Shown: piece after piece, positions 28,612 to 45,197 of the stretch
Numbering within the stretch: position 1 is the stretch's first letter
How the letters are laid out: each line of letters opens with the position of its first letter
Assembly (NCBI GenBank): GCA_018066285.1
Contig: JAGHRS010000003.1
Location: forward strand, 62,001 to 126,000
Direction of reading: 5' to 3'
DNA length: 64,000 nt
Origin: Candidatus Treponema caballi
GTDB lineage: Bacteria > Spirochaetota > Spirochaetia > Treponematales > Treponemataceae
Notes under the pieces: generated by a model
Told to the model about the DNA's origin: nothing
Seen by the model: the letters and a program-made list of their open reading frames with translations, nothing else
Database searches by the model: none
Translations under genes and position numbers: made by a program

Positions 28612-29583
28612 GTGGACAAGTACACTGAAAACGGGACAAAGCAGCGTGCTCCGAACAACCGGACGCTCACCCTGACTGACGCCGAGCGCACTGCCCTGCG
28701 CCCGCGGCTTCTGAAACTGAATGAGGTTGCTTTTACGGCCGCCGCGCTCACCGACAGGACACTCTGCGCCGATCTGATGGACGTTCTTCCGCTGCTGCCA
28801 GAAAAGTTCGCCGACCTTCTCATCATTGACCCGCCGTACAACCTGACCAAGCAGTTCGGCGGCGTCTCCTTCACCAAAACTGATGACGACAGCTACTACG
28901 CATATCTTGAAAGCTGGTTCAAGCCGCTTCTCCGCGTGCTGAAGGATGACGGTTCGGTGTACCTGTGCGGCGACTGGCAGAACTCGGCGCAGCTATACCG
29001 CATCATGAAAGAGAACCTGATCGTACAGAACCGCATCACCTGGCAGCGGGAAAAAGGGCGCGGCGCCATGCACAACTGGAAGAACAGCTGCGAGGACATC
29101 TGGTTCGGCACTAAAAGCGAAAACTACTATTTTGACGTTGATTCAGTGAAACAGAAGCGGCAGGTCATCGCACCGTACCGCGAAAACGGAAAGCCCAAGG
29201 ACTGGGAAGAAACTGATGACGGCAAGTTCCGGCTGACGTTCCCGGGAAACTTCTGGGATGACATCTCGATTCCGTACTGGTCAATGCCCGAGAACACCGA
29301 CCATCCGACACAGAAAAGCGAAAAGCTCATCGCAAAGCTCATTCTGGCCAGCTGCCCGGCGGGCGGTGTTGTCTTTGACCCGTTCCTGGGAAGCGGAACG
29401 ACGAGCGTAGTCGCAAAAAAGCTCGGCCGTCACTGGTGTGGGGTCGAGCTTAACGAAGAGTACTGTCTCTGGGCTGAGAAACGCCTTGAGCTGGCGGACA
29501 GCGACGCCTCAATACAAGGCTACACCGACGGCGTCTTCTGGGAGCGCAATACGGCGCGCGCCCAGGCCTTGAAAGCGCGCTAG
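28612..29583 (+). CDS. Solitary DNA adenine-type methyltransferase (beta class)
   Basis: 323 residues, GTG start 6 bp after AGGAGG. Motif IV LLIIDPPYNL comes before motif I FDPFLGSGTTSVVAKKLGR, the beta-class order of N6-adenine and N4-cytosine DNA methyltransferases; DPPY favours adenine. TDHPTQKSEKLIAKL is the usual lead-in to motif I. No restriction gene is adjacent, so it may be an orphan regulatory enzyme or part of a decayed restriction-modification system. It is co-transcribed with the ABC-F gene (9 bp apart). It ends in CTAG, whose palindrome also supplies the stop codon of the convergent phosphohexomutase gene. Confidence 0.88.
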   Translation: MDKYTENGTKQRAPNNRTLTLTDAERTALRPRLLKLNEVAFTAAALTDRTLCADLMDVLPLLPEKFADLLIIDPPYNLTKQFGGVSFTKTDDDSYYAYLESWFKPLLRVLKDDGSVYLCGDWQNSAQLYRIMKENLIVQNRITWQREKGRGAMHNWKNSCEDIWFGTKSENYYFDVDSVKQKRQVIAPYRENGKPKDWEETDDGKFRLTFPGNFWDDISIPYWSMPENTDHPTQKSEKLIAKLILASCPAGGVVFDPFLGSGTTSVVAKKLGRHWCGVELNEEYCLWAEKRLELADSDASIQGYTDGVFWERNTARAQALKAR

Positions 29584-31565
29584 TCCCGCTTCTCCGTGTA
29601 CACGCCGTCGCTGCACTGCAGTTTTCCTTCGCGGATGAGCGCATGCAGCACTGCATTTGCCAGAAGCGTGTCGTTTGTCAGCTCGTTCTGCGAGAAGCTG
29701 CCATTCTTTGAAAGCAACTCAAAAGCTTTTTCAACGCACTTTGTCTCATCCGTTCCTGCTTTTCTCATGCTGGAACGATGTGCATCACACAAAGCCTGTG
29801 CAACCGGCAGAAGCGTATCCGCAAGATCAGGCCTGCACTTGAGGTAGACTGCGTTTTTGTCTTCCGTTCCAGAGTTGCGGCTGAAAAGAAGTGCAACCCG
29901 CACATCCCCTTCTACAAGTGCATACGCGAGAACGTTCGGATCCTTGAAGACAACCTTTTCAGACTTGTACGGAAGAGCTGCAAGACCTTCCTGCATGACC
30001 GACTCATCCGCTTTCCAGATGTCACTTCCCGGATAGAAGAGATTCTTATCGACAAAGTAGGTATAGAACGTTTTTGAATAACCGCGTTCGAATGTCTTGT
30101 TTCCCTTCTGCAGCGAAAGGATTGTGTAAAGCGCTGTCAACATGCCGTTTCCAGAAAGCAGGGTTGCCTCTCCATCCGGCGTTTTCACCGGACAAGGAAT
30201 GATGACGTGGCCTGAACTTTCAAAACCGAGGAACAGCTTGTGCTCGGGATAGTTGCAAATCCACTTGTCACCGACATCAACGGTGTCTGTCACAAATCCG
30301 TAGTCTTTCTGGAGACACACGGTCGCCATACAGTCTGACTCAATGGTACTGACTGCAGTCAGCGCACCGGTAGCAGCTCCGCACATCCCCAGACTGACGC
30401 CTTCCTGCTTCATCACTGCAGCAATGAGATACGCTTCTTCATCGCCATCGTACACTTTGACTGAATCAGTCTCACGACTGTACTCAAGGACAAATCCGCG
30501 GTCCCCGTCACCGTCTACGGCAATGCCATACACAGGATAATCGTCACGTTCATCATGTCCCTGAGCGTATATTTTCTGTACCAGAACAGGCGCGTATGGG
30601 ATTTCATCACTTTCATACAGTGCGTGGCCTTCAATTTCAGCGACGCCGCAGTTTGCGTTAATATTTACGCCTGTCGGCTTTTGGGATGTCAGCGTGAATG
30701 CGATGCCGTTCTGAAAAAAGAACTGCACCGCGCTGTCTGTCCAGGAACCGTTTGCTGCATCCACGAAAAGATGCATGTTTCTGAAGGCTCCAGTAAATGA
30801 CTTTGGTATGGATTCCTGTAAAAACGATATCCGCCGGGTACTGTTGTCAAAATGAGTAACATTTCCAAAAGACAAAGGACCTTGTCTGCTTGATTCGGAA
30901 GCCAGCATGTACATATATGCAGACAGGATGTAATCACCTGTGGGACCTTCGCTCAGCAGTTTTTTTCCATTAATGAAGAACTTAATGCCATTCTGATTTG
31001 ATGGATTGTGGCTTGCCGTAAGCATTGCGCCACCTTTAATACCATGTTCCAGCATGAAAAGAGGAACATACGGAGTTGGCGACACACCCAGATCGACGAC
31101 ATTCATGCCACTCTCGATGAATCCCTGCAGCATACCGTGATTGAGACACCATCCAGTTGCAAGATCCCTGCCATCATTCGCTGTGCAGAACTGGTCACCA
31201 TCTTCTACCAGACCATTGTTTTCCAGCATGAGGACAAATGCCTTCACCGAGAGTTTTACTATATCCCGGGACAGAATGCTTTCCCGGGTAAAAAGACGTA
31301 GAGCCTCAAGTCCTGATACGTGTTCCGTATACACCTTACCACGCATACCATCGGTACCCATGAACGAAAATCTGGATAGGAGGAGGACATTTTCGCATTC
31401 ATGTTCGTCAGGGCTTGAGGACAGTAACGCCGCTGCTTTCTCAACATCAACCAGAACCGGATACGGATATTCCTTTGCCGCCTGGCTTTCCATAAGCGTT
31501 TTTACCGCCGGATTCTGGAAGATTTCATTATCAGTTTCAAACTGCTTTGTAATGAAAAGTACCAT
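29580..31565 (-). CDS. Alpha-D-phosphohexomutase (phosphoglucomutase-like)
   Basis: 661 residues, ~100 longer than common bacterial enzymes. The phosphoserine loop is GGAMLTASHNPSNQNG, the metal loop DGDGDRG, the sugar-specificity loop GFESSGHV, and the C-terminal phosphate loop includes FSRNSGTEDKNAVYL. RFSFMGTDGMRGKV marks the substrate-phosphate entry domain after ~70 extra N-terminal residues; a further ~80 residues extend the C-terminus. It interconverts hexose 1- and 6-phosphates in the cytosol. It directly follows the GH94 gene (no spacer), so it probably converts the sugar 1-phosphate made by that phosphorylase. Whether it prefers Glc or GlcNAc phosphates is open. Confidence 0.9.
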   Translation of the reverse strand: MVLFITKQFETDNEIFQNPAVKTLMESQAAKEYPYPVLVDVEKAAALLSSSPDEHECENVLLLSRFSFMGTDGMRGKVYTEHVSGLEALRLFTRESILSRDIVKLSVKAFVLMLENNGLVEDGDQFCTANDGRDLATGWCLNHGMLQGFIESGMNVVDLGVSPTPYVPLFMLEHGIKGGAMLTASHNPSNQNGIKFFINGKKLLSEGPTGDYILSAYMYMLASESSRQGPLSFGNVTHFDNSTRRISFLQESIPKSFTGAFRNMHLFVDAANGSWTDSAVQFFFQNGIAFTLTSQKPTGVNINANCGVAEIEGHALYESDEIPYAPVLVQKIYAQGHDERDDYPVYGIAVDGDGDRGFVLEYSRETDSVKVYDGDEEAYLIAAVMKQEGVSLGMCGAATGALTAVSTIESDCMATVCLQKDYGFVTDTVDVGDKWICNYPEHKLFLGFESSGHVIIPCPVKTPDGEATLLSGNGMLTALYTILSLQKGNKTFERGYSKTFYTYFVDKNLFYPGSDIWKADESVMQEGLAALPYKSEKVVFKDPNVLAYALVEGDVRVALLFSRNSGTEDKNAVYLKCRPDLADTLLPVAQALCDAHRSSMRKAGTDETKCVEKAFELLSKNGSFSQNELTNDTLLANAVLHALIREGKLQCSDGVYTEKRD

Positions 31566-34055
31566 TTACTTACCCATTACAATCCGTACTTCATGTGCTT
31601 TTCCATCACATGCAGAAAGCGGAATGCAGTTTCCTTCAAGTTTCTTGCCGTCAAGGAAGGTTTCCTTTACGCCTTTTTCGACGCCATCCGGGTTTTCATA
31701 AGCGATTGAGAACGTCGTGTTCCGGAATGTGCGGACTGCGTTAAATGTCTTCCACTCAGCAGGTACGCACGGATTGATGACAAGACCGTTGTACTCAGGC
31801 TGCAGACCGAAGATGTTTTCAGCAGCAACACGAAGGCGCGTCGGAGCGGTTCCTGTAAGCCAGGTGTGTCCTGCCCTCATGTACTCGCCGCTTGAAGGGC
31901 CTGCAACGTATTCAGGATACACGAAGCGCTCAGCTGCATATCCGTACGGATCTTCTTCACTGCAGACAGCAGGAAGTGTTTCATAGAAGAGTTTCCACGC
32001 TTCTGTTCCCTTTCCGTAGTTGCACAGGGATGCAATGTACCAGCTTTCAACATGGCGGAAGAAACTTCCGTTTTCTTTCTTTCCTGGAGCATTGCGCTTG
32101 TAGGCAGACCAGTCATCAGGGAGCTTGCCTTCTGAAAGCGTCATGGAAGGCGTACAGAGACAGACACCGCCCTTTGCGGCGAGCTTCTTCTCTACCATGG
32201 CGGCAGAAGCCTCAAACTGCTCTTTTGTTGCAATGCCTGAGAAGCCTGCCCATGCTGTCGGCTCAAAGAAAATGAGTCCGTCTGTATCAGCGGAACCAAC
32301 AGCCTGCTTTTTGTCACAGTCAGGTCCGAGTAGTCTGATGTAAGCGCCGGTTGAATCAATGCAGTATCTGTTGACTGCATCCTTGATGAGCAGGGCTTTT
32401 GTTTCGCAGTGATTCTTCACCATCTGATGTTCTGCATCCTCAAACTGGTTGCAGAGTTCCGCAAAATCAACATACGCCTTATACAGCATTTCTGCTGCCA
32501 TGACGGAAAGGTGCTCAGGATAGCCGCTCAGGTCATCGTTCCAGTCAGCATCTCGCATAATTGGCATTCCCTGAACGCTTCTGTCCCAGACCTGTGAAAG
32601 GGCTACTGTACAGTGCTCAAAAATGGAACCCTTTGCAGCAGGTTTTCCTTCCTTTTCATCCGCGTACGGAGTTACCTCATTGAGGAACGCGAAATCACCG
32701 CTTTCCTTAATGTACTGACAGACTGCATAGATGAACCAGATCGGGTCGTCACAAGCGTTGAAATCTGTCGTTCCCGGTGCTGAAACGTAGAAGTTATGAT
32801 AAGCACTGCCGTCAGCGAACATCTGTTCTGCTATATAAAGGAGGAAATCATGAACGCGCTTTGTGTCGTACGGCAGCAGTGCGAGAATGTCCTGCAGGAT
32901 GTCTCTGAAACCGAATCCGTACTCAAAACCTGAATGGAAGCGTGACTTCATTCTGTTCAGCGCCATAACCATAGAGCACTGATACTGCAGCCAGCGGAAA
33001 GAGTGGCGGAACACATCCTCGCCGGAAACCGTAAGCTGGAGCATGTCAAACTCGTCGCTCCATGCCTTGTTTACCTCAGCGAGCAGTTTCTGAGCCTTTA
33101 CCGGATCCTTGAGCTGTTCAAAAGCAGCCTTCACCTGAGCCTTGTTGTTGGTGTAGTAATCCTGTGTATCTGCTGCGACATTAAGAACGACAAACTGCTT
33201 TGTCTCGCCCGGAGCAAGCTCAAGCACGAAATGAAGGACAGAAAGTGCATCCGTCATTTCCTCAGAATTGCGGCAGGTAAGCTTATCCTGCTTGATTCCT
33301 TCAGGATTTGCCATGGTGTTTGTGTAATGGCCGACGAAATCTTCATATTTCTGTGAATGAGAAACGCTCTTTTCTGAGCATGAATGAACGAGGACGCGTC
33401 CGAAAAGTCCCTTAATGGTATCTTCATCACAGTTGAAGGAAATGCCGTAATCATTACGCCATACAATAGAATCAATTTCAGCATCATAAAAGCCGCCGGC
33501 CATCATAAGGGAATTGAATCCTGAGAACTGAATGCCGCGCGCGTCACCAACATTAACAGGAGCGGTTGCATACAGGTTCAGCGTACGCTTTCTGTCCGCA
33601 GTGTTCTTAACGGTAACCAGCTGAACAAGGGCATCATAGCCTTCCGGAATGAAGTTATCTGTCGTGACCTCAAGATCAGCGTACGCAGTCTTTGTTGTCA
33701 GCGCGCCGAAACTGAACGTCGTCTCAAGCTTCTGGTTTTCATGCAGCATCGGATACCAGTCATTGGAAAAGCAGGTGCCGTTTTCATCCCTTATATAGAT
33801 GTAATTTCCAAGAAGACGTGTCTTGTACGGATCCTCGTGGACAAATCCATTAAGAAGATCACCTTCCTGGGTGCCGATGCGGGCAAAGTTTGAACCATTA
33901 TTGGTAATTCCCCAGCATAAAGTTTCTGTCAGCGGACGGTTCCTGCGTGCCAGCAGCATAAGCCAGGGTTCACGTGTTTTATTCTCAATACTCTCTGTAA
34001 GATGAACAGTATCATCATTTGAAAAGGAAAAGTTTCCATTCTTTCTTGCACTCAT
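31566..34055 (-). CDS. GH94-family glycoside phosphorylase
   Basis: 829 residues, no signal peptide, matching the length of cellobiose and chitobiose phosphorylases. The N-terminal beta-sandwich leads to an (alpha/alpha)6 barrel with RWLQYQCSMVMALNRMKSRF, GFGFRDILQDILALLP and FADGSAYHNF. MRDADWNDD at residues 501-508 matches the ADWND motif of GH94 enzymes that carries the general acid. Such enzymes split beta-linked disaccharides with phosphate, giving a sugar 1-phosphate and saving ATP. The next gene, a phosphohexomutase, suits this. Transcription should start near 34093, within the LacI-type operator. The exact disaccharide (cellobiose, laminaribiose, chitobiose) cannot be told by eye. Confidence 0.9.
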   Translation of the reverse strand: MSARKNGNFSFSNDDTVHLTESIENKTREPWLMLLARRNRPLTETLCWGITNNGSNFARIGTQEGDLLNGFVHEDPYKTRLLGNYIYIRDENGTCFSNDWYPMLHENQKLETTFSFGALTTKTAYADLEVTTDNFIPEGYDALVQLVTVKNTADRKRTLNLYATAPVNVGDARGIQFSGFNSLMMAGGFYDAEIDSIVWRNDYGISFNCDEDTIKGLFGRVLVHSCSEKSVSHSQKYEDFVGHYTNTMANPEGIKQDKLTCRNSEEMTDALSVLHFVLELAPGETKQFVVLNVAADTQDYYTNNKAQVKAAFEQLKDPVKAQKLLAEVNKAWSDEFDMLQLTVSGEDVFRHSFRWLQYQCSMVMALNRMKSRFHSGFEYGFGFRDILQDILALLPYDTKRVHDFLLYIAEQMFADGSAYHNFYVSAPGTTDFNACDDPIWFIYAVCQYIKESGDFAFLNEVTPYADEKEGKPAAKGSIFEHCTVALSQVWDRSVQGMPIMRDADWNDDLSGYPEHLSVMAAEMLYKAYVDFAELCNQFEDAEHQMVKNHCETKALLIKDAVNRYCIDSTGAYIRLLGPDCDKKQAVGSADTDGLIFFEPTAWAGFSGIATKEQFEASAAMVEKKLAAKGGVCLCTPSMTLSEGKLPDDWSAYKRNAPGKKENGSFFRHVESWYIASLCNYGKGTEAWKLFYETLPAVCSEEDPYGYAAERFVYPEYVAGPSSGEYMRAGHTWLTGTAPTRLRVAAENIFGLQPEYNGLVINPCVPAEWKTFNAVRTFRNTTFSIAYENPDGVEKGVKETFLDGKKLEGNCIPLSACDGKAHEVRIVMGK

Positions 34056-34086
34056 AGTTTTACTCCATAAAAAATATGCTTTATGC

Positions 34087-34098
34087 TTTCACGTGAAA
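34087..34098. promoter_or_regulatory. LacI-type operator O1
   Basis: TTTCACGTGAAA is a perfect 12-bp palindrome with the central CG that LacI-family proteins favour. It covers the predicted transcription start of the leftward GH94 operon. The same palindrome recurs at 40910-40921. Confidence 0.75.
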
Positions 34099-34099
34099 A

Positions 34100-34128
34100 T
34101 TATTACACGTTATCTACCCTATCGTCAA
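34100..34128 (-). promoter_or_regulatory. Promoter of the GH94-phosphohexomutase operon
   Basis: On the minus strand TTGACG (34128-34123) and TAATAA (34105-34100) are 17 bp apart. Operator O1 begins 2 bp downstream of the -10 box. Confidence 0.7.
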
Positions 34129-34209
34129 GCAAAAATTTATTTATTTTCATTGCAGTTTTATGGAAATTCATGTACTTTTATGCATTCTTCCACTATTTTA
34201 CCCCGTTTA

Positions 34210-34242
34210 TTTCACTTTAACGTGAAAATATTTTTCTTGACA
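34210..34242 (+). promoter_or_regulatory. Split operator and -35 box upstream of the sugar importer
   Basis: TTTCAC and GTGAAA half-sites (34210-34215, 34222-34227) are 6 bp apart, unlike the contiguous palindromes elsewhere. A consensus TTGACA follows at 34237-34242. No good -10 hexamer is found at the right distance; the best region overlaps the palindrome AGGATAAGATTATCCT (34261-34276), which may be a second operator. Confidence 0.5.
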
Positions 34243-34296
34243 AATACTTTTTTTTGATTCAGGATAAGATTATCCTTGAGTGATGAAAGGGATGAT

Positions 34297-34387
34297 TCTG
34301 GTTTCCGGAAATTAGTGCATGCCTGTTCCGGAGACCAGACATAAAACTATCTAATATTTCTATTTACAAGTAATTAGAAAGTTTTAT
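34297..34387 (+). promoter_or_regulatory. Structured 5' leader: two consecutive stem-loops
   Basis: TCTGGTTTCCGG (34297-34308) pairs with CCGGAGACCAGA (34328-34339) with one G-U. Directly after it, ATAAAACTATCTAAT (34341-34355) pairs with ATTAGAAAGTTTTAT (34373-34387) with one mismatch. They lie in the ~180-nt untranslated leader of the binding-protein gene. No known riboswitch class was recognised, and no U-run terminator follows. Confidence 0.6.
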
Positions 34388-34453: not shown

Positions 34454-35911
34454 ATGAAACAGTTTTTACGTAAAAGTGGATTAGTAATCCTCGCACTCGT
34501 TCTGGTTTCTGTTGCATTCACAGGATGTAACAAAGAAAAAGCTCCTGAAGCTGTTAAAGTTCAGGTAATGGTTGGTATGGGTACAGGAACTGACCCGTCA
34601 CAGATTGCAATTCACGAAGAGATTCAGGAACTCTTCAATTCAACAGTTGGAAAGGAAAAGGGCATTGAGCTCGAGTTCCTTACTGTAGAATATTCAAGCG
34701 CAGACACCAAGTTCACAACACTGGTTGCTGGTGACATGACACCGGATATCGTTGGACCAGTCGGAATCATGGGTGTTGCAAAGTACATTGATGAATGGAT
34801 GGACATTGAGCCATACATCAAGAAGGACAACGTAGACCTTTCTGTATATGATGAAGCACTAATCAATTCAAACCGCTACAACATCAACGGTGAGTCAAAG
34901 CTCGTTGGACTCCCAATCGGTTTCTATCCTTCTGTCCTCTACTATAACGAAGACATCTTCGACCGCGCTGGCATTGACTATCCTCCAACAGAATGGGGAA
35001 CAGCAGACTGGACATATGACAAGCTCTATGCAGAAGCCCGCGCTATGACATTCGATGCTAACGGTCTTAATCCAACAGATGCAGGATTTGATATGTTCAA
35101 CATGGCACAGTACGGCTACGACGGCCTCGACTGGGCTCCATGGCGTGCTATCGTAGGTAAGTACTTTGACGGAAACGGCAACTCAGTTGCTCTCGGTGTT
35201 TCAGAAGACTACAAGACAGCAAAGATGAACTCACCAGAGTGGAAGCAGGCATTCAAAGACCTTGAAACAATGGTTTACAAGGACTGTATCCGCCCTGCAA
35301 CAACATCAAACATGGGAACTTCACTCTTCGGCGACAACGACCCACTCGGATCAAACAAGTGCGCTATGTGGGAAATCTTCTCATGGATGAGCTATGCATA
35401 CGAAGGATGGGACGCAAACTTCAAGTGGAACGTTGCTGCAATTCCTTCAATGAACGGACACATCGTTTCTGCAACAAACGAAGATACATTCGTAATGTGT
35501 AAGTCTGCAAAGCACCACGACGAAGCATGGGAAGTTTACAAGTGGCTCTTCCAGCCTGAAATCTATGCAAAGCTCTGCAAGAACTATGGTGGTATTCCAG
35601 CTATGAAGTCACTGCAGTCAGCATGGGTCGACCAGCAGAAGGACGGCGTTATGGGTGAAGACGGCGAATACGAGTGGAACTGTTATCCACGTCCTGACAT
35701 CAACTGGGAAGTATTCCTTGAAGCAGGAAAGTACGCTGACAATCCTAACAACGAATCATGGGTACCAAACTACAGCAAGGTTTGGGATGCAATGGAAAAC
35801 GCTATGAACAACGTTATTTCAGGCAACTACACAACAACAGACCAGCTCGCAGAAGATCTGAACAAAGAAGTTCAGGGCTACCTGGATGAGTACTGGGCTG
35901 CACAGAAGTAA
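34454..35911 (+). CDS. Sugar ABC transporter substrate-binding lipoprotein
   Basis: 485 residues from the ATG at 34454, preceded by AAGGAG. The signal MKQFLRKSGLVILALVLVSV ends in the lipobox FTGC. The mature protein is a family-1 extracellular solute-binding protein: VMVGMGTGTDPSQIAIHEEI, LVAGDMTPDIV, LVGLPIGFYPSVLYYNEDIFDRAGI-type stretches and FVMCKSAKHHDEAWEVYKWL near the hinge. It should capture an oligosaccharide and deliver it to the two permeases encoded next. Codon use is biased to AAG, GAC and GAA-rich codons, suggesting high expression. A terminator between it and the first permease would favour excess binding protein. Confidence 0.94.
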   Translation: MKQFLRKSGLVILALVLVSVAFTGCNKEKAPEAVKVQVMVGMGTGTDPSQIAIHEEIQELFNSTVGKEKGIELEFLTVEYSSADTKFTTLVAGDMTPDIVGPVGIMGVAKYIDEWMDIEPYIKKDNVDLSVYDEALINSNRYNINGESKLVGLPIGFYPSVLYYNEDIFDRAGIDYPPTEWGTADWTYDKLYAEARAMTFDANGLNPTDAGFDMFNMAQYGYDGLDWAPWRAIVGKYFDGNGNSVALGVSEDYKTAKMNSPEWKQAFKDLETMVYKDCIRPATTSNMGTSLFGDNDPLGSNKCAMWEIFSWMSYAYEGWDANFKWNVAAIPSMNGHIVSATNEDTFVMCKSAKHHDEAWEVYKWLFQPEIYAKLCKNYGGIPAMKSLQSAWVDQQKDGVMGEDGEYEWNCYPRPDINWEVFLEAGKYADNPNNESWVPNYSKVWDAMENAMNNVISGNYTTTDQLAEDLNKEVQGYLDEYWAAQK

Positions 35912-36010: not shown

Positions 36011-36919
36011 ATGGCTAAAGACAGAAGATTAGTACCACAGTCCGAAAGATACGCCAGATGGGGATGGCTCTTTGTATCTCCATGGATTATTGGTTTCATC
36101 TGTTTCACACTGGGACCAATGCTGGCTTCATTATATTTGTCACTGACGCGGTACGATGGCCGTAACGCTCCAGTATTTATTGGTCTTGATAATTTCAAAA
36201 CATTGTTCCACGACCCGAAAGTATGGAACAGTCTTAAAGTAACTTTTAAATTTGCATTTATGTCAGTTCCGCTCGGAATCATTTCCGGCTTCCTGCTTGC
36301 ATGTCTTTTGAACACAAAGCTCAAGCTGGTCAATTTCTGGCGAACTCTTTTCTATCTGCCGGCAATGATTTCCGGCGTTGTTATCGCCATGCTGTGGCGC
36401 GGTCTGTTTGATGACCAGTACGGTATCATCAACTATCTGCTGCGTAGTATCGGCTTGAACGGTCCGAAATGGCTCAATGACCCGAAGTATACGCTGTACT
36501 GCTTCCTCTTCCTCACGGTTTGGGGCTGCGGTGGCGGTATGATCATCTATCTTTCCGGTCTGCAGTCAATTCCGACATCACTGTATGAAGCTGCAGAACT
36601 TGATGGCTGCAACCGCTTCAGAAAACTTATTCACATTACCATTCCACAGATGACCCCAATTCTGTTCTTCCAGCTGATCATGGGTATCATCGGTGCATTC
36701 CAGTTCTTCTCAGAACCAATGATCCTGACAAAAGGTGGTCCTGCAGATTCGACCATGTTCTACAACCTGTACCTGTACAACAACGCGTTCAAGTACCAGT
36801 CGATGGGCTTCGCGTCTGCTCTGGCATGGGTTCTGTTCGTAATCATCCTTATCCTGACTATGCTCGTATTCCGCAGTTCTGAATTGTGGGTCTTCTACGA
36901 AAGCGAGGTGAAAAAATGA
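36011..36919 (+). CDS. Sugar ABC transporter permease (UgpA/MalF-like)
   Basis: 302 residues with six membrane helices, beginning with the usual short cytoplasmic tail and GWLFVSPWIIGFICFTLGPM. The EAA loop that docks on the ATPase is SLYEAAELDGCNRFRKLIHI with ITIPQMTP. GTGGTGG-type slip is absent. AGGAGG lies 6 bp before the ATG. It pairs with the following permease (start and stop overlap ATGA). No ATPase gene is present in the locus, so the importer probably uses a shared MsmK/UgpC-type ATPase encoded elsewhere. Confidence 0.93.
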   Translation: MAKDRRLVPQSERYARWGWLFVSPWIIGFICFTLGPMLASLYLSLTRYDGRNAPVFIGLDNFKTLFHDPKVWNSLKVTFKFAFMSVPLGIISGFLLACLLNTKLKLVNFWRTLFYLPAMISGVVIAMLWRGLFDDQYGIINYLLRSIGLNGPKWLNDPKYTLYCFLFLTVWGCGGGMIIYLSGLQSIPTSLYEAAELDGCNRFRKLIHITIPQMTPILFFQLIMGIIGAFQFFSEPMILTKGGPADSTMFYNLYLYNNAFKYQSMGFASALAWVLFVIILILTMLVFRSSELWVFYESEVKK

Positions 36920-37959: not shown

Positions 37960-37975
37960 TATTCAGGAGCAGGCT

Positions 37976-38917
37976 TTGTTCGCAGTTAAGATTTATGCTG
38001 CACCCGCTGATATCGACACAACAGTCGCTCAGTGGAAGCAGCTTGGCTTTGATACAATCATGGTCGGACGGGCCTGCCTGAAAGATGCGGCTTTCATAGA
38101 AAAGCTGCACGAAGCAGGCTTCGCCTTAAGCGTCGTTGAGCCGCTCTTCCTTGCAGATGAGGGAACCGCGCCTTTCAGCGACTACAGGCCGGCTTTGTTT
38201 GAAGACGGTTCTGTTGCGGTCGATGACTGGGTACGTTTTGTGTGCCCGTCTGACACCGCGTGGCTTTCAAAAGTCTACGACCGTATCCACAACGACGCTG
38301 CTTCCGGCGCTGATATCGTAACATTTGATTTTGCGCGTTTCTTCCAGTTCTGGGAGATGGTTCTGCCGGAAACTGATGAAGCCGCCTTGAAAAGAACATG
38401 CAGCTGTGATCTCTGTTCTGCCGCCGCTTCAGCTTTTAAAAGCGGACGGGAATGGCGCACAGGCGTCATCAGCAGCACTGTGAAAAAATGCAGCCAGGCA
38501 GCGCATGCCGCCAAATCAGACATCCGCACAGGCGTTCACATTGTTCCCTGGAAAACGGATATGTTCGGTGGCGCACTTGAAGGCGTACTCGGGCAGGACC
38601 TCAGTGAATTAAGCAACTATGTTGACTTTCTTGCCCCAATGACGTATCAGCACATGATCCACCAGCCGCCTGAGTATATCTCTGAACTGGTGACAAACCA
38701 TAGAAAAACAATCAATGACAGAATCCCTGTCATTCCATCCGTTCAGATTAAGGAAATCTACAGAACAGATGTTCTGGCGCGCGATGAGTTCAGGAAAGCA
38801 ATTCAGGAAGCGCTCAGAAGTTCAACAGGAGGGCTTTCTTTCTATCAGTGGACTGACATTGCGGAATCTAAAGAAAGCTTCGATATCATAAAACAGGAGT
38901 TACAACCATATTTATGA
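37976..38917 (+). CDS. TIM-barrel-like protein with an acidic/cysteine motif, unknown function
   Basis: 313 residues, TTG start 3 bp after AGGAGCAGG. No signal peptide, so cytosolic. Alternating strands and helices suggest a TIM barrel: LGFDTIMVG, then DIVTFDFARFFQFWE, RTCSCDLCSAAASA, HIVPWKTDMFGG, VDFLAPMTYQHMI and GLSFYQWTDIAES. The F-D-F-x-R strand followed by C-x-C-x-x-C resembles the region FIIDDFFFTQCMCDDC of the larger protein at 17128. LAPMTYQHM resembles strands of glycoside hydrolases such as GH18 relatives. Its place between the importer and a glycan lipoprotein suggests a step in intracellular glycan processing; the reaction is unknown. Confidence 0.6.
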   Translation: MFAVKIYAAPADIDTTVAQWKQLGFDTIMVGRACLKDAAFIEKLHEAGFALSVVEPLFLADEGTAPFSDYRPALFEDGSVAVDDWVRFVCPSDTAWLSKVYDRIHNDAASGADIVTFDFARFFQFWEMVLPETDEAALKRTCSCDLCSAAASAFKSGREWRTGVISSTVKKCSQAAHAAKSDIRTGVHIVPWKTDMFGGALEGVLGQDLSELSNYVDFLAPMTYQHMIHQPPEYISELVTNHRKTINDRIPVIPSVQIKEIYRTDVLARDEFRKAIQEALRSSTGGLSFYQWTDIAESKESFDIIKQELQPYL

Positions 38918-39807
38918 AAAAGACACGTTCAGCTGCAGCCGTCCTTATGTGCTGCATTGCCTTGAGCCTGTTCACATCATGCTCAAAAGGAAACAACATG
39001 AAAAAGACAGTTCCCGTTCAGTACGCAGGACTCAGAAGTTCAACATACGGTGTTGATCCGTTCCCGACCGTAGAAGAGTGGGACGGTTATGCACAGCACA
39101 TGCAGGACGGCTTTGAAGGAAGTACCGGCTGTTATGTCTGGATTGTCGGCTACGTAGAAGGCAACAGCGCAACTAAGCAATGCGTGCTCAACTTCCCTAT
39201 CGATACGAAAATCGAAAACGTCACTGACTTTCCGGTTGATATGAACAAGGACTTTCTTGAGATGGCAAGCGAAAAAGGATACGCCGTCTGGCTCCAGGTA
39301 GAGCCTGGTGACGCTGATCTTGTAGAACTTGCTTCTGCAGTCATGCGTCATTACAAGAACTACAAATGCGTAAAAGGCTTCGGAATTGACGTCGAATGGT
39401 ATCATCCTTACGGAACAGACGGCTACGGAGTTCCGCTCACCGATGAAATGGCGGAAAACGTAGACAAGGCAATCAAGAAGGTAAACAGAAAATATACCTG
39501 TTTTGTCAAACACTGGGATGCTGACTGGTTGCCCCCGACTTACCGTTCTGATATGATTTTCGTTAACGACAGCCAGTACCACGAAACTGTAAAAACAATG
39601 CGTGGTGAATTCGATAAATGGGCAAAGCATTTTGCACCAAATACCGTCATGTACCAGATTGGTTATCCTTCAGATAAAAGAATCTGGGGAAAGTTCGACC
39701 AGCCTGAATACGAACTTGGTGCTTATCTTGCCGAAGGTGCTGCCGAAGACCAGAACGTCGGCATAATCTGGGTAGATTTCTCACTGCGTGACGTGATGGA
39801 TAAATAA
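38914..39807 (+). CDS. Lipoprotein with TIM-barrel-like (glycosidase-type) fold
   Basis: 297 residues. The signal MKKTRSAAAVLMCCIALSLF ends in the lipobox FTSC. The mature part includes YAVWLQVEPGDADLVELASA, then KGFGIDVEWYHPYGTDGYG and CFVKHWDADWLPP. An acidic pair (D-V-E) at the end of a barrel strand is what glycosidases of the GH18/GH25-type folds use, but I cannot place the family. The start overlaps the upstream stop (ATGA), so it is coupled to the TIM-barrel-like gene before it. It is probably envelope-anchored and acts on, or binds, the glycan that the importer takes up. Confidence 0.6.
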   Translation: MKKTRSAAAVLMCCIALSLFTSCSKGNNMKKTVPVQYAGLRSSTYGVDPFPTVEEWDGYAQHMQDGFEGSTGCYVWIVGYVEGNSATKQCVLNFPIDTKIENVTDFPVDMNKDFLEMASEKGYAVWLQVEPGDADLVELASAVMRHYKNYKCVKGFGIDVEWYHPYGTDGYGVPLTDEMAENVDKAIKKVNRKYTCFVKHWDADWLPPTYRSDMIFVNDSQYHETVKTMRGEFDKWAKHFAPNTVMYQIGYPSDKRIWGKFDQPEYELGAYLAEGAAEDQNVGIIWVDFSLRDVMDK

Positions 39808-39811
39808 AAGA

Positions 39812-39825
39812 TGTAGTATACTACA
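39812..39825. promoter_or_regulatory. Perfect 14-bp palindrome upstream of the LacI gene
   Basis: TGTAGTATACTACA lies between the lipoprotein stop and the ribosome binding site GGGAAG of the LacI gene. It differs from the TTTCACGTGAAA sites and may be a separate operator. Confidence 0.45.
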
Positions 39826-39841
39826 ATACAGGGAAGTAATA

Positions 39842-40843
39842 ATGAGTATTACAATACATGATGTTGCAAAAAGAGCTGGAGTATCTCACACAACAGTTTC
39901 CTGGGTTATTCATGACAGACCGGAAATTACGGAAGAAACAAAAGCAAAAGTTCTGAAAGCCATTGAAGAACTGAACTATCATCCGAATTACCTTGCCAGA
40001 AGCCTTGTTAAGGGAAAGACGAATACCATAGCGATTGTTGCAAACTTCTTCTCAAGTACCTTCGAAATGGAAATTCTGAAAGGTATTGAGCAGAGCATCA
40101 ACTCCCTGAAAAGTTCCTACACCATTACCCTTTTCTCAACATTGGGACAGCACGATAAAGTACTTTCTGACATTGTGTACAGCAAGCGCGCAGACGGCGT
40201 CATCCTGATGAGCATCAGCCCGACCGATAAAGTCGTTGAGCTCTATCAGGAAAACAACGTTCCGCTTATGGTCATTGATGAAGAGGGGCACGGCGCCATT
40301 GAAGTAAAGCTCGACAACTTCCAGGGCGCCTACCTTGCCACTGAGCATCTTATTAAATCCGGCCGTACGAATCTTGCCATCGTTCTTGGTGATGGCGGAA
40401 AGCTCGGCCTTTCCCAGCTTGAACGCAAAAAGGGCTTTTTGCAGGCCCTGAAAGACAATAATCTTCCCTTCCACGAACAGAACGAATTCTACATTTCTGA
40501 TTACTATTTCGAGGAAGGCCAGATTGTCTACAAGCGCATGTCACGAATAGCATCAAACATTGACGGCATTTTCTGCGCTGCAGGTGACGTTGTTGCAACG
40601 GGTATCATGCTCGAAGCCCGGAAGCAGTCACTGCGCATTCCTGAAGATCTGTCCATTGTCGGCTATGATGACATCATCTCTTCTTCACTGATTGATCCTC
40701 CGCTGACAACTATCCGTCAGCCACTGGTTCAGATCGGACGTAATTCATACGAAGTACTTGTCCGCGTCCTTGAAACGGGAACCACAGAAGGTATTGATAA
40801 GCTTGTGTACGAACCGCAGCTCATCAACAGAAGTTCTGTGTAA
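39842..40843 (+). CDS. LacI-family transcriptional regulator of the glycan locus
   Basis: 333 residues. The N-terminal helix-turn-helix ITIHDVAKRAGVSHTTVSWV and the hinge helix YLARSLVKGKTNTIAIV are canonical; the rest is a periplasmic-binding-protein-like effector domain (DGIFCAAGDVVATGIM, LSIVGYDDI, PPLTTIRQP). LacI proteins of this kind repress until a sugar or sugar phosphate binds. It sits centrally in the locus, and the palindrome TTTCACGTGAAA occurs to both sides (34087 and 40910), making it the natural candidate to bind them. It may be transcribed with the preceding genes or from its own weak promoter. Confidence 0.94.
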   Translation: MSITIHDVAKRAGVSHTTVSWVIHDRPEITEETKAKVLKAIEELNYHPNYLARSLVKGKTNTIAIVANFFSSTFEMEILKGIEQSINSLKSSYTITLFSTLGQHDKVLSDIVYSKRADGVILMSISPTDKVVELYQENNVPLMVIDEEGHGAIEVKLDNFQGAYLATEHLIKSGRTNLAIVLGDGGKLGLSQLERKKGFLQALKDNNLPFHEQNEFYISDYYFEEGQIVYKRMSRIASNIDGIFCAAGDVVATGIMLEARKQSLRIPEDLSIVGYDDIISSSLIDPPLTTIRQPLVQIGRNSYEVLVRVLETGTTEGIDKLVYEPQLINRSSV

Positions 40844-40909
40844 CAAAAAACATAATTCAAAATACAGAAAGCAACACAGGCAAAATGCTGCATATTTCCG
40901 CCCTGTTAC

Positions 40910-40921
40910 TTTCACGTGAAA
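40910..40921. promoter_or_regulatory. LacI-type operator O3
   Basis: A second exact TTTCACGTGAAA, in the 95-bp gap between the LacI gene and the phosphatase lipoprotein gene, 7 bp before AGGAGG. It implies control of the downstream operon; no convincing -35/-10 pair was found. Confidence 0.7.
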
Positions 40922-40938
40922 ACTAAAAGGAGGCTTTC

Positions 40939-42246
40939 ATGAAAAACAAACTGACTGTACAGGCTGCGCTTATTTTAACCGCAATCTGCATGCTTTTCGT
41001 TTCCTGTTCTGGAAACGGTTCGGGTTCAGTACGCGCTTCAGCTGCAGAACGCGTTGACCTTGTCTACACAAATCCGGGAGAAGACTGTTCTTCTTCAATA
41101 CGCTTTTCCTGGCACAGCAGCGAAAGCGAAGTAACGCTTTTGTGCGCGAAAGCCTCCAATGAATCATTCTTCCTGCCAAAAAAGGTGAAGTGCCAGGGCG
41201 TCTTTACGCCGGTTGCGTTTCACGATGGCGAAGAATACTATCAGTTTGAGGCAGAACTGAATCATCTTTCAAAAAACACTGACTACATCTATAAGTTCCG
41301 CTTTGCTGACGGAGCTGAATCTGACACGTACGCATTCAGCACAGCTGATAACGATGGCGAGTTCGGTTTCCTCTGGATTGGCGACGTTCATTCAGTTGCT
41401 GACATTCCGCACCGCATGGAACTTGCTGAGGAACTCGCCGCTTCTGCAGAAGTGCTTCTTGAAGGCGACATGGACCTGGTGGTCTCAACAGGAGATGAAG
41501 TCTGCTATGGCGCCTACTACAGCGCATGGCAGCAGTGGCAGCACACGTTCATCAACCAGAAGGTGTGGGCCGGCATTCCAGGCAATCACACGTACTACGA
41601 CGTTTTTGACGGAGATCAGGAAATCGTGGACGAACGCTGGTGGGACGCAACCCAGAATCAGCCGATGAACGGTCCTGAAGGTCAGTCAAGCTCATTCTGG
41701 TTCAAATACGACTCAATCCTCTTCATCGGCATTGACTGCATCGATTCTTCACACATCAACGAGCAGAAAAAGTGGTTCAAGAAAGTTATTGAAAGCAACG
41801 AAGGTCAGTATCAGTACATCGTTGTCTTTGAACACTATCCGTACATCAACAGCTTTACCGGCTCGTTCGGCGGCACCGACGTCAGTTTCTTCCTGTGGCA
41901 GCCGGTGTTCGACCAGTACGGCGTAGACCTTGCCCTTTCAGGCGACAGTCACGTATATCTTGAATCAAAACCGCTCTACAAGAAGAAGGTTTCCGCGGAT
42001 CCGGAGAAAAACGGAACGACGTACTTCGTAAGCCCGCAGATAGGCGACCGTGCGCGTGAAATTGAAAGCTACGTCAGTCCTGAGCTTTTCGAAGCACGCA
42101 TCACGAGTGCTGACCTTGCCCAGAGTTCGGGCTTAAGCGCTTTCAAAGTCACAAAGGAAGGCATGACGCACTATCTGCTTGACGGCGACGGAAACATTGT
42201 GCACGAAACGTTCATCAAGGCTAAACGCCCGTACACAGGAAAATAA
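40939..42246 (+). CDS. Purple-acid-phosphatase-like metallophosphoesterase lipoprotein
   Basis: 435 residues, lipobox FVSC near residue 23. An N-terminal fibronectin-III-like region (IRFSWHSSESEVTLLCAKAS, NTDYIYKFRF) precedes a calcineurin-like phosphoesterase. Metal-ligand motifs are seen in order: GDVHS, STGDEVCYG, GIPGNHTYYD, VFEHYPY and LSGDSHVYLE. The last replaces the usual GHxH with GDSH. This fold removes phosphate from varied esters outside the cell. AGGAGG precedes the ATG. It heads a five-gene run with GH18, histidine phosphatase and deacetylase genes under operator O3, so it may strip phosphate groups from a decorated glycan. Confidence 0.85.
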   Translation: MKNKLTVQAALILTAICMLFVSCSGNGSGSVRASAAERVDLVYTNPGEDCSSSIRFSWHSSESEVTLLCAKASNESFFLPKKVKCQGVFTPVAFHDGEEYYQFEAELNHLSKNTDYIYKFRFADGAESDTYAFSTADNDGEFGFLWIGDVHSVADIPHRMELAEELAASAEVLLEGDMDLVVSTGDEVCYGAYYSAWQQWQHTFINQKVWAGIPGNHTYYDVFDGDQEIVDERWWDATQNQPMNGPEGQSSSFWFKYDSILFIGIDCIDSSHINEQKKWFKKVIESNEGQYQYIVVFEHYPYINSFTGSFGGTDVSFFLWQPVFDQYGVDLALSGDSHVYLESKPLYKKKVSADPEKNGTTYFVSPQIGDRAREIESYVSPELFEARITSADLAQSSGLSAFKVTKEGMTHYLLDGDGNIVHETFIKAKRPYTGK

Positions 42247-42258
42247 GGAGGCGCTTTC

Positions 42259-43356
42259 ATGAAAACAAACAAATCAACACTGCTCAATATATCAATGCTT
42301 TTACTTGCCCTGATCGGACTCGTACTTGCCTTCAGCCTGCTCCTTACCTCATGCAGCAAAAAGGGAAGCCCGACCGAACTCGCATCCGGAAGACGCAACG
42401 TCATCTACTCATACAAACTGGATGATGTCATGTATCCTGAGCAGTACACGCACATCGTCATTTCGTTCCTGAAGACAGACAAGGAAGGCAACATCTTCGC
42501 TTCGAGCTTTCCGCACAAGGCAACGAAAATAAAGACATTCAGAGAAAAACATCCTGAAGTAAAGATACTCTGCTCGCTCGGTGGCGGCAGCAACAGCGAC
42601 ATGCTCGCTCCGTGCATCATCAATGCAGAGGCCCGCAAAAAGCTTGCAGAACAGACAGCGGCGCTTATAAAAGACCGCGAGCTTGATGGCGTTGATCTGG
42701 ACTGGGAGTACTACGATGATTACAAGGCTTCGAATGCCGCGTACCTTGACCTTGCACGCCAGCTCCGCGCCCTGCTTGGAAAAGACTACCTCATTACGAT
42801 GGCGGGCCAGAAAGCGGAAGAGTTTTACGCTGAGGAAAGCATCGTCACCATGATGAACGACGTACTCGATTTCACAAGTGTCATGACATACGACTTTGAT
42901 TATGAGTACCGCTCAAACGGCAAAATCGGCTTCAACGGCAACTTCACCGAAACACGCGCCCTCATGGAAGATTACGCCCGGTACGTTTCAAAAGCTAAAC
43001 TCAATACGGGAATCCCTTACTATGGCGGCAAGTACCAGGTAAAGGAAGACCGAGTTTACGCCCGCGATGAGAAAGCTGTCAGTTACCTCGGTTCCGTCAA
43101 CTATCCGAACGTCGTGAAGGTCATCGGTGACAAAGCGGCAACGCCTGACGGTTACGCTGATGATAACGGCGTTGCTCTCGCCGTCGACAACAAGACGCTC
43201 TACATCTTTGACAACGAGACGACAGTCCGCACAAAGGCAGCATGGTCCTGTGACCAGGGTTTCGGCGGCGTCATGGCGTGGGTTGCAAGCGATGACGACG
43301 GGCTTGCTACGCTGCAGAAAGCAGTTACCGACACACTGAATAACTACAGAAAATAG
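42259..43356 (+). CDS. GH18-family lipoprotein (chitinase-like)
   Basis: 365 residues. The long hydrophobic signal ends in the lipobox LTSC (~residue 32). The GH18 barrel shows ILCSLGGGSNSD on strand 3 and DGVDLDWEYY at residues 143-152, the DxxDxDxE signature with Glu150 as predicted acid/base. SVMTYDFDYEY and GGVMAWVASDD mark later strands, the latter with the conserved Trp at the base of the sugar pocket. GH18 enzymes cut beta-1,4 GlcNAc linkages (chitin, N-glycan cores, peptidoglycan-like chains). Anchored outside the cytoplasm, it could generate the oligosaccharides the importer takes up. AGGAGG lies upstream, 12 bp after the previous stop. Confidence 0.9.
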   Translation: MKTNKSTLLNISMLLLALIGLVLAFSLLLTSCSKKGSPTELASGRRNVIYSYKLDDVMYPEQYTHIVISFLKTDKEGNIFASSFPHKATKIKTFREKHPEVKILCSLGGGSNSDMLAPCIINAEARKKLAEQTAALIKDRELDGVDLDWEYYDDYKASNAAYLDLARQLRALLGKDYLITMAGQKAEEFYAEESIVTMMNDVLDFTSVMTYDFDYEYRSNGKIGFNGNFTETRALMEDYARYVSKAKLNTGIPYYGGKYQVKEDRVYARDEKAVSYLGSVNYPNVVKVIGDKAATPDGYADDNGVALAVDNKTLYIFDNETTVRTKAAWSCDQGFGGVMAWVASDDDGLATLQKAVTDTLNNYRK

Positions 43357-43393
43357 AAAAGGCCGCTGTTCTTGCGGCAAAAAGGAGAAACAT

Positions 43394-44077
43394 ATGAGAC
43401 TTTGGTTTATCAGACACGGCGAGCCCGATTACGACACAGATTCACTGACACCGCTCGGAATTGAACAGGCTGAACTTCTCGCAGAACGCATCAAGTCAGT
43501 TCCGTTTGCAGAAGTTTGCCACTCTCCCATGGGACGCGCACGCCAGACATGCGAAATAAGCAACAGAAAGCTCGGCAAACAGGCACAGGAGCTGCCGTTC
43601 CTTAAGGAAGTTGAATGGGGTAACCTTTCAGGCGACGCGTACTGCGATGAAAGCCCCTGGTCAATCAGCGACCGGATGATAAAGGAAGACCACTGGTATC
43701 CGAAAGGCGAAGACTGGCGCACTGATCCGCGTTCATGCCAGGACCGCACCATTCTCGATGTTGATAAGAGACGGAAAGCGTTCGATGACTGGATGGCTCA
43801 GCACGGATACGTCCGTGAAGGCCAGCTGTACCGCATCGACAAAGCGTATGACGAAGATGTTGCGTTCTTCTGTCACGGAGGTATCTCCTGCACGCTCGTC
43901 TCACACTTGCTCAACATTCCGTTCTGGCAGTTCATCGTGCACTACCCTATGGATATGACAGCCATCACCAAAATCAACATAAAGGGAAAGACAGGCAGTT
44001 ATACGGCAGCCGAAGTCGATTTCATAAACAACTATTCTCATCTGCCATACGAAAAGATGACACTCTATGAGGATTAA
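43394..44077 (+). CDS. Histidine phosphatase (phosphoglycerate-mutase-like)
   Basis: 227 residues, no signal peptide. LWFIRHGEPDYDTDSLTPLG carries the RHG phosphorylation motif; the Arg of SPMGRARQT and the His of FFCHGGISCTLVSHLL complete the pocket, so the active site looks intact. GAAAGGAG precedes the ATG. A GCCGC/GCGGC hairpin lies between it and the GH18 gene. Family members act on sugar phosphates, phosphoglycerate or alpha-ribazole phosphate. In this operon a sugar phosphate is plausible but unproven. It overlaps no neighbour. Confidence 0.88.
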   Translation: MRLWFIRHGEPDYDTDSLTPLGIEQAELLAERIKSVPFAEVCHSPMGRARQTCEISNRKLGKQAQELPFLKEVEWGNLSGDAYCDESPWSISDRMIKEDHWYPKGEDWRTDPRSCQDRTILDVDKRRKAFDDWMAQHGYVREGQLYRIDKAYDEDVAFFCHGGISCTLVSHLLNIPFWQFIVHYPMDMTAITKINIKGKTGSYTAAEVDFINNYSHLPYEKMTLYED

Positions 44078-44093
44078 TCAGGAGGATATGATT

Positions 44094-45197
44094 ATGAACA
44101 GAATTCCATCAAGCAACCCGCCATGCGGATTAGAGCCAAAACAGGTTCCGCAGCTTATTTCATTTACTTTTGACGACAACACCTACTCAGGTTTCCCGGG
44201 TTCAGGCGCAGAAGGCGGCATCCGCTTCATCATCGACCAGCTTCATGGGCACAATACTGCGGGCACATTCTACGTAAAGGGAAACAACGCGACAGAAAAC
44301 CCGTTCGAAGACAATGAACTCATCAAGCAGGCATGGAAAGAAGCCTACGACAAGGGATTTGAAATCGGTTCACACACGTACTCTCATCCACATGGCATTG
44401 AGACTGACTGGGACGCTGTTCCCATGACAAGAAAGAAAGTGCTTTTCAAGGATGACTGGAAAAAGGAGATTAATCAGTGTCTCGACGTCATCAAGAGTCT
44501 TGGCATTCCACGCTCAGACGTTATCGGACACAGAACGCCATTCCTCGCCTTCAACGACGATGTTTACAGCGCCCTTCAGGAAATGGGCTTTGAATATGAA
44601 GCTGCTGTCGAAGAAGGCTGGCAGACAGAGCAGGATGGAACAAACTTCCTGTGGCCATACACGCTCGACAACGGCTGTGAAGGCGACAAGTGGGTTTCTG
44701 AAAACTTCTTTGACGGCGCTGAACCGCTCATCGGAAAGCATCCGGGACTGTGGGCCCTGCCATGCTATGCGTGCATTGTCCCTCCGGATGACAAATGCGT
44801 GGAATACGGTACAACAGTCGGCGCCCGCGAACGCCTTCACAAGCAGAACCCTAACTTCGACGTGGAAAGCGGCAAAGTTACCGGCCTTGACTGGAACATC
44901 TGGTTCGAGTTCTACATGACGAAAGAAGACGCACTCGCAACACTTAAATATACGTTTGACCTTCGTTACAACGGCAACCGCTGTCCATGGCCGATCGGCT
45001 TCCACAGCGACATTTACTCTGACAAGTACGACATCAACGACCTTGAAGGCGATGATCCTGCAAACATCAACGCAAACGCCCAGCAGCGCCGCGAGTGCTT
45101 CGCTGAGTTCCTGGAATACGTGCTTTCAAAGCCGGACACGCGTGTCGTCACATCAGCAGAAATGCTCCGCTGGCTGAAAGACCCGTCCGCTTTATAA
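44094..45197 (+). CDS. Polysaccharide deacetylase family protein (cytosolic)
   Basis: 367 residues from the ATG at 44094, 8 bp after AGGAGG; earlier ATGs at 44067 and 44088 are worse placed. NodB-type motifs are clear: LISFTFDDNTYSG (catalytic Asp and metal Asp), GSHTYSHPHGIE (metal His pair) and DVIGHRTPFLAF (Arg-x-Pro). No signal peptide is visible, unlike most chitin or peptidoglycan deacetylases, so it may act on imported N-acetylated oligosaccharides. It is the last gene of the operon. The stop overlaps that of convergent trxA within TTATAA. Confidence 0.88.
   Translation: MNRIPSSNPPCGLEPKQVPQLISFTFDDNTYSGFPGSGAEGGIRFIIDQLHGHNTAGTFYVKGNNATENPFEDNELIKQAWKEAYDKGFEIGSHTYSHPHGIETDWDAVPMTRKKVLFKDDWKKEINQCLDVIKSLGIPRSDVIGHRTPFLAFNDDVYSALQEMGFEYEAAVEEGWQTEQDGTNFLWPYTLDNGCEGDKWVSENFFDGAEPLIGKHPGLWALPCYACIVPPDDKCVEYGTTVGARERLHKQNPNFDVESGKVTGLDWNIWFEFYMTKEDALATLKYTFDLRYNGNRCPWPIGFHSDIYSDKYDINDLEGDDPANINANAQQRRECFAEFLEYVLSKPDTRVVTSAEMLRWLKDPSAL

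What the first reader, a model, noticed from the sequence alone, without database searches (positions are those of the whole stretch)
29580..45197. A LacI-controlled glycan locus with shared TTTCACGTGAAA operators and unfamiliar TIM-barrel proteins
Seen directly: the exact palindrome TTTCACGTGAAA lies on the GH94 promoter (34087) and before the phosphatase/GH18/deacetylase genes (40910), with a split version before the importer (34210). A LacI gene sits between them. Established: GH94 gives sugar 1-phosphates, phosphohexomutases recycle these, and GH18 and NodB-type deacetylases act on N-acetylated glycans. Inference: this is one regulon for an imported beta-linked, possibly phosphorylated or acetylated, oligosaccharide, with deacetylation in the cytosol. 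Two proteins (37976, 38914) have no recognised family and could hold new activities.
Basis: partly seen in the sequence, partly recalled or inferred. Interest (0 to 1): 0.7.

Follow-up and report, generated by a model that had tools for sequence, protein, structure and literature searches.

The report
Rumen spirochaete amino-sugar uptake regulon
A rumen spirochaete carries a set of genes, apparently switched together by one repressor, that seems to import a beta-linked amino sugar and split it with phosphate using an uncharacterised branch of a known enzyme family; if right, it is a new way to salvage chitosan-like or biofilm-type sugars.

Summary
In detail: TTTCACGTGAAA lies at 34087 and 40910, with a one-mismatch copy at 34216. 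It is not chance. Two copies with at most one mismatch recur between the GH94 and importer genes in all five genomes examined that share the locus, against 0 of 1000 shuffles each. The others differ in flanks. A second target cluster 46 kb away encodes surface lipoproteins and phosphatases.

The GH94 is probably neither a cellobiose nor a chitobiose phosphorylase, because clear copies of both lie elsewhere in this genome. It belongs to a deep separate clade (28% identity to cellobiose phosphorylase). The catalytic core is intact, but two residues next to C2 of the -1 and +1 sugars became acidic (Asp508, Glu715). A GlmM-like mutase is always its neighbour; a cytosolic CE4 deacetylase is in four of five loci. 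The 37976 protein folds like PgaB/Cwp19; the 38914 protein is a weakly modelled barrel. Best reading: a regulon for partly de-N-acetylated beta-glucosamine oligosaccharides, with GH94 releasing GlcN-1-phosphate. Regulon: strong. Substrate: inferred.

The parts
29580..31565 (-). GlmM-like alpha-D-phosphohexomutase (661 aa, long for its family), operon partner of GH94
   Evidence: PF02878 6e-17, PF02880; best NCBIfam glmM 122 bits, far below its 448 cut-off; best PDB phosphoglucosamine mutases; next to GH94 in all loci
31566..34055 (-). GH94 phosphorylase of a divergent 'D/E' clade; R384, D385, W505, acid D507, E661, H668 kept; D508 and E715 new
   Evidence: PF17167 5e-68; trees; residue counts; -1 subsite residues from PMC5309861 and C2 contacts from PMC5667895
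34087..34098 (.). Operator 1, TTTCACGTGAAA, directly downstream of the -10 of the GH94 promoter
   Evidence: promoter TTGACG-18-AATAAT 34128..34099 minus strand (consensus match only)
34216..34227 (.). Operator 2, TTTAACGTGAAA, upstream of a TTGACA box of the importer operon
   Evidence: spacing to operator 1 is 129 bp here, in G001 and in G002; 131 in G008; 115 in G270
34464..34475 (.). Possible third site TTTTACGTAAAA inside the first codons of the binding-protein gene; also in G001 and G002
   Evidence: may be conserved for coding reasons (LRKS)
34454..35911 (+). Sugar-binding lipoprotein (SBP_bac_1/8)
   Evidence: distant PDB matches UspC, MBP1
36011..36919 (+). ABC sugar permease 1
   Evidence: PF00528
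36916..37959 (+). ABC sugar permease 2
   Evidence: PF00528
37976..38917 (+). UNK1: cytosolic TIM barrel, PgaB C-domain/Cwp19-like fold; invariant D118, R121, E127 and CxCxxC
   Evidence: AF2 pLDDT 84.3, pTM 0.85; Foldseek 5oq2/5oq3/4p7x, TM 0.69-0.73, about 12% identity; alignment A6
38914..39807 (+). UNK2: lipoprotein/membrane-anchored probable TIM barrel with invariant D159-x-E161
   Evidence: AF2 pLDDT 67; weak GH18-like hits, TM 0.42-0.44; alignment A5
39842..40843 (+). LacI-family repressor, recognition helix VSHTTVSW
   Evidence: PF00356, PF13377; conserved orthologues; the only one of four LacI proteins in the genome with this helix
40910..40921 (.). Operator 3, TTTCACGTGAAA, 17 bp upstream of the phosphatase start codon
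40939..42246 (+). Purple-acid-phosphatase-like lipoprotein
   Evidence: PF00149, PF16656; a divergent PAP-like gene is also in the G270 locus
42259..43356 (+). GH18 lipoprotein with intact DxxDxDxE (DGVDLDWE)
   Evidence: PF00704 8e-46, motif
43394..44077 (+). Histidine phosphatase, cytosolic
   Evidence: PF00300; kept in G001 and G002
44094..45197 (+). CE4 deacetylase without visible signal peptide; TFDD and HTYSH motifs
   Evidence: PF01522 1e-14; nearest PDB chitin deacetylase 5z34; also in G001, G002, G270

Best explanation
A LacI repressor binds YTTTYACGTRAAA-like operators at the divergent GH94/importer promoters, at the phosphatase-GH18 promoter and at a second cluster (C4:49188/49446). 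Surface lipoproteins (GH18, CBM-like proteins, phosphatases) prepare an extracellular beta-linked GlcNAc/GlcN glycan; the ABC importer brings oligosaccharides in. In the cytosol the CE4 enzyme deacetylates them, the PgaB-like barrel UNK1 may trim longer chains, and the divergent GH94 phosphorolyses a glucosamine-containing disaccharide to GlcN-1-phosphate (or GlcNAc-1-phosphate), which the GlmM-like mutase turns into the 6-phosphate for glycolysis. Shown by sequence: genes, operators, their conservation, clade, residue changes, neighbourhoods. Inferred: repression, substrate, product, order of steps.
For: Operators: two per divergent promoter in five genomes, 0/1000 shuffles each; LacI helix SHTTVS invariant in all five orthologues. 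Core set PGM-GH94 | importer-UNK1-UNK2-LacI kept in G001, G002, G008 and G270. GH94: own genome has a canonical cellobiose phosphorylase (60% to CtCBP) and a canonical chitobiose phosphorylase (1132 bits to 1v7v), so this one likely does something else; separate clade 100/100. Catalytic residues kept; the Cys next to the acid, which contacts O2 of the +1 sugar in CDP (PMC5667895), is Asp in 5/5 versus Cys in 26/28; the Gln matched to CDP Gln874, which contacts O2 of the -1 sugar, is Glu in 5/5 versus Gln in 27/28; the same two changes are in the paralogue subclade. Mutase nearest GlmM. CE4 without signal peptide in four of five loci. UNK1 fold nearest Cwp19 and PgaB, a dPNAG hydrolase (PMC5933820). 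Other loci: GH8 beside the same GH94 type, GH9 beside UNK2; both families include chitosan-active enzymes (PMC6097792).
Against: No biochemical data. GH8 and GH9 are mostly cellulases, so beta-glucan is not excluded. The carboxylates could bind hydroxyls. The Gln874-to-Glu715 mapping rests on residue spacing, not on a direct alignment to CDP. The mutase is far below the GlmM cut-off. The deacetylase is missing from the G008 locus. The phosphatases are not explained by this pathway. Positions 508 and 715 were noticed after looking, not predicted.
Confidence: 0.4

Rival explanations
1. The same regulon, but for an N-acetylated disaccharide that differs from chitobiose in linkage or partner (for example beta-1,6 GlcNAc from PNAG, or a GlcNAc-containing hetero-disaccharide), with GH94 releasing GlcNAc-1-phosphate.
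For: GH18, CE4 and the PgaB-like fold of UNK1; a canonical chitobiose phosphorylase is already present elsewhere, so a different linkage is plausible.
Against: The known GlcNAc-1-P-forming GH94 keeps Cys and Gln at the two C2-contact positions; the new carboxylates fit a free amine better.
Confidence: 0.25
2. A beta-glucan or other neutral glucoside locus: GH94 releases Glc-1-P and the mutase acts as phosphoglucomutase; deacetylase and GH18 are passengers or the deacetylase removes O-acetyl groups.
For: Nearest PDB matches are cellobiose phosphorylases; nearly all GH94 enzymes give Glc-1-P (PMC8950772); GH8 and GH9 neighbours in other genomes.
Against: A canonical cellobiose phosphorylase is elsewhere; GlmM-like mutase; CE4 and GH18; altered residues.
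Confidence: 0.22
3. A phosphorylated glycan (phosphomannan- or teichoic-acid-like) is the target, dephosphorylated outside by the lipoprotein phosphatases before import.
For: PAP-like gene under operator 3, two PF00245-related proteins and an EEP-family protein downstream of the C4:49446 site.
Against: PAP is absent from the G001 and G002 loci; no phosphodiester-glycan enzyme in the conserved core.
Confidence: 0.1
4. The 12-mers in the window are parS-type ParB sites, not LacI operators.
For: Same 12-bp core; true parS copies at C25:6102 and 6230.
Against: Window sites lack the outer G and C of parS; orthologous promoters carry TTTTACGTGAAA and TTTCACGTTAAA, which break parS, yet keep place and pairing.
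Confidence: 0.03

Closest known systems
GH94 cellobiose phosphorylase (CtCBP 3qde, CgCBP 2cqs)
   Same: Same phosphorylase family with the same catalytic acid, -1 subsite core and phosphate His
   Different: 28% identity; the loop after WND is much shorter; the CBP Arg in GxGRG is Tyr379; Asp508 and Glu715 replace Cys and Gln
GH94 N,N'-diacetylchitobiose phosphorylase (VpChBP 1v7v)
   Same: Same family; amino-sugar phosphorolysis feeding a phosphohexomutase
   Different: The true orthologue is on contig C75 of this genome; the locus enzyme is a separate clade
GH94 cellodextrin phosphorylase (CtCDP 5nz7)
   Same: Reported to accept GlcN-1-P as a donor (PMC5667895)
   Different: GlcN-1-P is non-natural there and Cys625/Gln874 are present
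PgaB C-terminal domain (GH153) and Cwp19 (GHL10)
   Same: UNK1 fold, TM 0.69-0.73
   Different: About 12% identity; cytosolic; FDFARF instead of the PgaB His-Asp catalytic motif; CxCxxC motif
LacI-family sugar regulons
   Same: Local repressor gene, palindromic operator with central CG at divergent promoters
   Different: Operator shares its 12-bp core with parS

Membership tests
GH94 | Pfam GH94 domains over cut-off and conserved R-D, W-N-D acid, KEN Glu and phosphate His | tested here: met
   PF17167 230 bits vs 27; residues 5/5; conserved residues listed in PMC5309861
Cellobiose phosphorylase | Falls in the CBP clade; CBP loop and +1 residues kept | tested here: not met
   L119 on C19 is the genome's CBP
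Chitobiose phosphorylase | Falls in the ChBP clade | tested here: not met
   L100 on C75 is the genome's ChBP
GlmM phosphoglucosamine mutase | Score above the NCBIfam glmM cut-off | tested here: not met
   122 of 448 bits, but best of all mutase models
LacI family | HTH and periplasmic-binding-like domain | tested here: met
   PF00356 and PF13377
LacI family | Binds the proposed operators and responds to a sugar | not testable with these tools
   needs gel shift and induction tests
GH153/GHL13 or GHL10 (UNK1) | Pfam match over cut-off | tested here: not met
   DUF4015 E 0.003 for the window protein; relative in L051 reaches GHL13 at 9e-6, below cut-off
GH18 (UNK2) | DxxDxDxE motif and profile match | tested here: not met
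   only DxE kept; hhalign 11-15% probability; fold hits weak
CE4 deacetylase | NodB-domain match and TFDD/HxxxH metal motifs | tested here: met
   PF01522 54.6 bits vs 23.1; motifs read in the sequence
parS | TGTTTCACGTGAAACA with outer G and C | tested here: not met
   window sites are gcTTTCACGTGAAAat and acTTTCACGTGAAAac

The most novel reading that the evidence does not exclude
The GH94 'D/E' clade is a new phosphorylase specificity, a (GlcN)2-type phosphorylase making GlcN-1-phosphate, working after cytosolic deacetylation and feeding a dedicated mutase: an ATP-sparing route for chitosan or de-N-acetylated PNAG oligosaccharides in gut spirochaetes, with UNK1 and UNK2 as two new glycosidase families.
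Probability: 0.25. Interest if true: 0.75.

Novelty: new variant of a known kind. Interest (0 to 1): 0.5.

Why it matters
GH94 enzymes have known donors Glc-1-P and, in one case, GlcNAc-1-P (PMC8950772). A clade with carboxylates at both C2 contacts beside a GlmM-like mutase gives a directly testable prediction of a third donor, useful for making chitosan-type sugars. It would also explain how rumen spirochaetes use fungal or biofilm amino-glycans. The parS overlap warns that plain motif scans of this operator mislead.

Tried and rejected
Cellobiose and chitobiose as the natural substrate: judged unlikely because both canonical enzymes are elsewhere. Window sites as parS: rejected by flanks and by orthologous variants. 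DNA looping from the 129-bp spacing: not claimed, because G270 has 115 bp. Counting near-matches genome-wide: uninformative (19 sites with at most 1 mismatch, 19 in the reversed control; the looser TTTNACGTNAAA is not enriched in G000). UNK2 as GH18: profile comparison not significant. Solved structures by sequence for UNK1 and UNK2: nothing useful. Binding-protein ligand from PDB relatives: too distant. Literature on this locus: none found.
Full report
WHERE. The window is C4:62001-126000 of a 2.9 Mb, 75-contig, 99.8% complete draft genome.

OBSERVATION. Exact sites at 34087 and 40910 and a one-mismatch site at 34216 are confirmed.

THE MOTIF HAS TWO USERS. Seven exact copies are in the genome. 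Two, C25:6102 and 6230, sit beside gyrA/gyrB and a DnaA-like gene (gene names read from the sequences) and read TGTTTCACGTGAAACA, the ParB site parS (PMC7022226). Relatives show the same parS form in clusters of two to four. The window sites read gcTTTCACGTGAAAat and acTTTCACGTGAAAac. Other non-parS copies are C4:49446, C55:14549 (24 bp before an acyltransferase gene) and C50:4796. A scan for the bare 12-mer therefore mixes two systems.

FOOTPRINT. The locus recurs in G001, G002, G008 and G270. In each, and in the window, the GH94/importer intergenic region has exactly two sites with at most one mismatch; 0 of 1000 shuffles reach two in any of the five. Spacing is 129, 129, 129, 131 and 115 bp. 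The variants TTTTACGTGAAA and TTTCACGTTAAA break parS but keep place. LacI residues S15-H-T-T-V-S20 are invariant in all five; the other three LacI proteins of the genome have different helices. Promoter-like boxes lie just upstream of the operators for GH94 and for C4:49446 and 49188; these are consensus matches only.

REGULON. Beyond the window, sites at C4:49188 (one mismatch) and 49446 sit between divergent lipoprotein genes: a GLUG-motif protein on one side; a CBM4_9-like protein, two alkaline-phosphatase-like proteins and an EEP-family protein on the other. All have lipobox-like N-termini by eye.

GH94. Four GH94 genes are in this genome. C19 is a canonical cellobiose phosphorylase (60% to CtCBP). 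C75 is a canonical chitobiose phosphorylase (1132 bits to VpChBP). The locus enzyme is 28% identical to CtCBP and falls with its orthologues in one clade, 100/100 support (long branch, so its position relative to other clades is unsure). A phylum sample of 393 genomes added members in G402 and G370 and a second copy in G008; all other sequences score 300 bits or less, against 655 and more for the full-length members outside G008's second copy. There the arrangement is GH94a-mutase-GH94b. The wider clade is again 100/100.

RESIDUES. R384, D385, W505, D507, E661 and H668, matching the conserved -1 subsite, acid and phosphate residues listed for GH94 (PMC5309861), are kept. The residue after the acid is Asp in 5/5 against Cys in 26/28; in CDP this Cys625 bonds O2 of the +1 sugar (PMC5667895). 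The YxxQ Gln is Glu in 5/5 against Gln in 27/28; by residue spacing it corresponds to CDP Gln874 and VpChBP Gln690, and Gln874 contacts O2 of the -1 sugar. The paralogue subclade shares both changes. Acidic groups at both C2 positions suggest amines there: inference, made after seeing the alignment.

PARTNERS. The mutase beside GH94 is nearest to GlmM but far below its cut-off. The CE4 enzyme has no visible signal peptide in the window, G001, G002 or G270. UNK1 (cytosolic) has a confident model (pLDDT 84) whose best matches are Cwp19 and PgaB; PgaB cleaves deacetylated PNAG (PMC5933820). UNK2 is a lipoprotein or membrane-anchored protein, its model is only moderate (pLDDT 67), and its GH18 likeness is weak. 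UNK2 lies beside a GH9 gene in G193; GH94a lies after a GH8 gene and an Opp-type importer in G370. Both families hold chitosan-active members (PMC6097792) but also many cellulases.

CONCLUSION. The regulon is well supported by conservation. The amino-sugar reading is the most economical one for CE4, GH18, the PgaB-like barrel, the GlmM-like mutase and the GH94 residues together, but remains untested. The phosphatases are not explained.

Noticed in passing
G000 C25:6102 and 6230 (L012): Two parS sites TGTTTCACGTGAAACA between the gyrA end and an N-acetylglutamate-synthase-like gene, near gyrB and a DnaA-like gene: likely origin region.
   Followed up: yes
L011:8094-14188 (C4:48.1-54.2 kb): Second operator cluster: GLUG and CBM4_9-like lipoproteins, two PF00245-related proteins, one EEP protein; why so many phosphatases is unexplained.
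   Followed up: partly
L125:8283 (C75): Near-operator TTTTCACGAGAAAA about 80 bp upstream of the canonical chitobiose phosphorylase gene; may link it to the same regulon.
   Followed up: no
L014:14549 (C55): Perfect 16-bp palindrome ACTTTCACGTGAAAGT 24 bp before an acyltransferase (PF01757) gene: possible further regulon member.
   Followed up: partly
L148, L149, L150, L151: GH94a-mutase-GH94b tandem in three genomes of different families; two divergent phosphorylases around one mutase.
   Followed up: partly
L059 (G193): UNK2 beside GH9 and another importer, with two TTTTAACGTTAAAA palindromes upstream.
   Followed up: no
L050 (G270): Three UNK2 copies in one locus and an operator-like site before the deacetylase gene.
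   Followed up: partly
L040:7590-8180 (G008): Stretch of imperfect tandem repeats downstream of the lacI gene.
   Followed up: no
window 29580-29583: The mutase gene's end overlaps the end of the convergent DNA-methyltransferase-like gene (28612-29583) by four bases.
   Followed up: no
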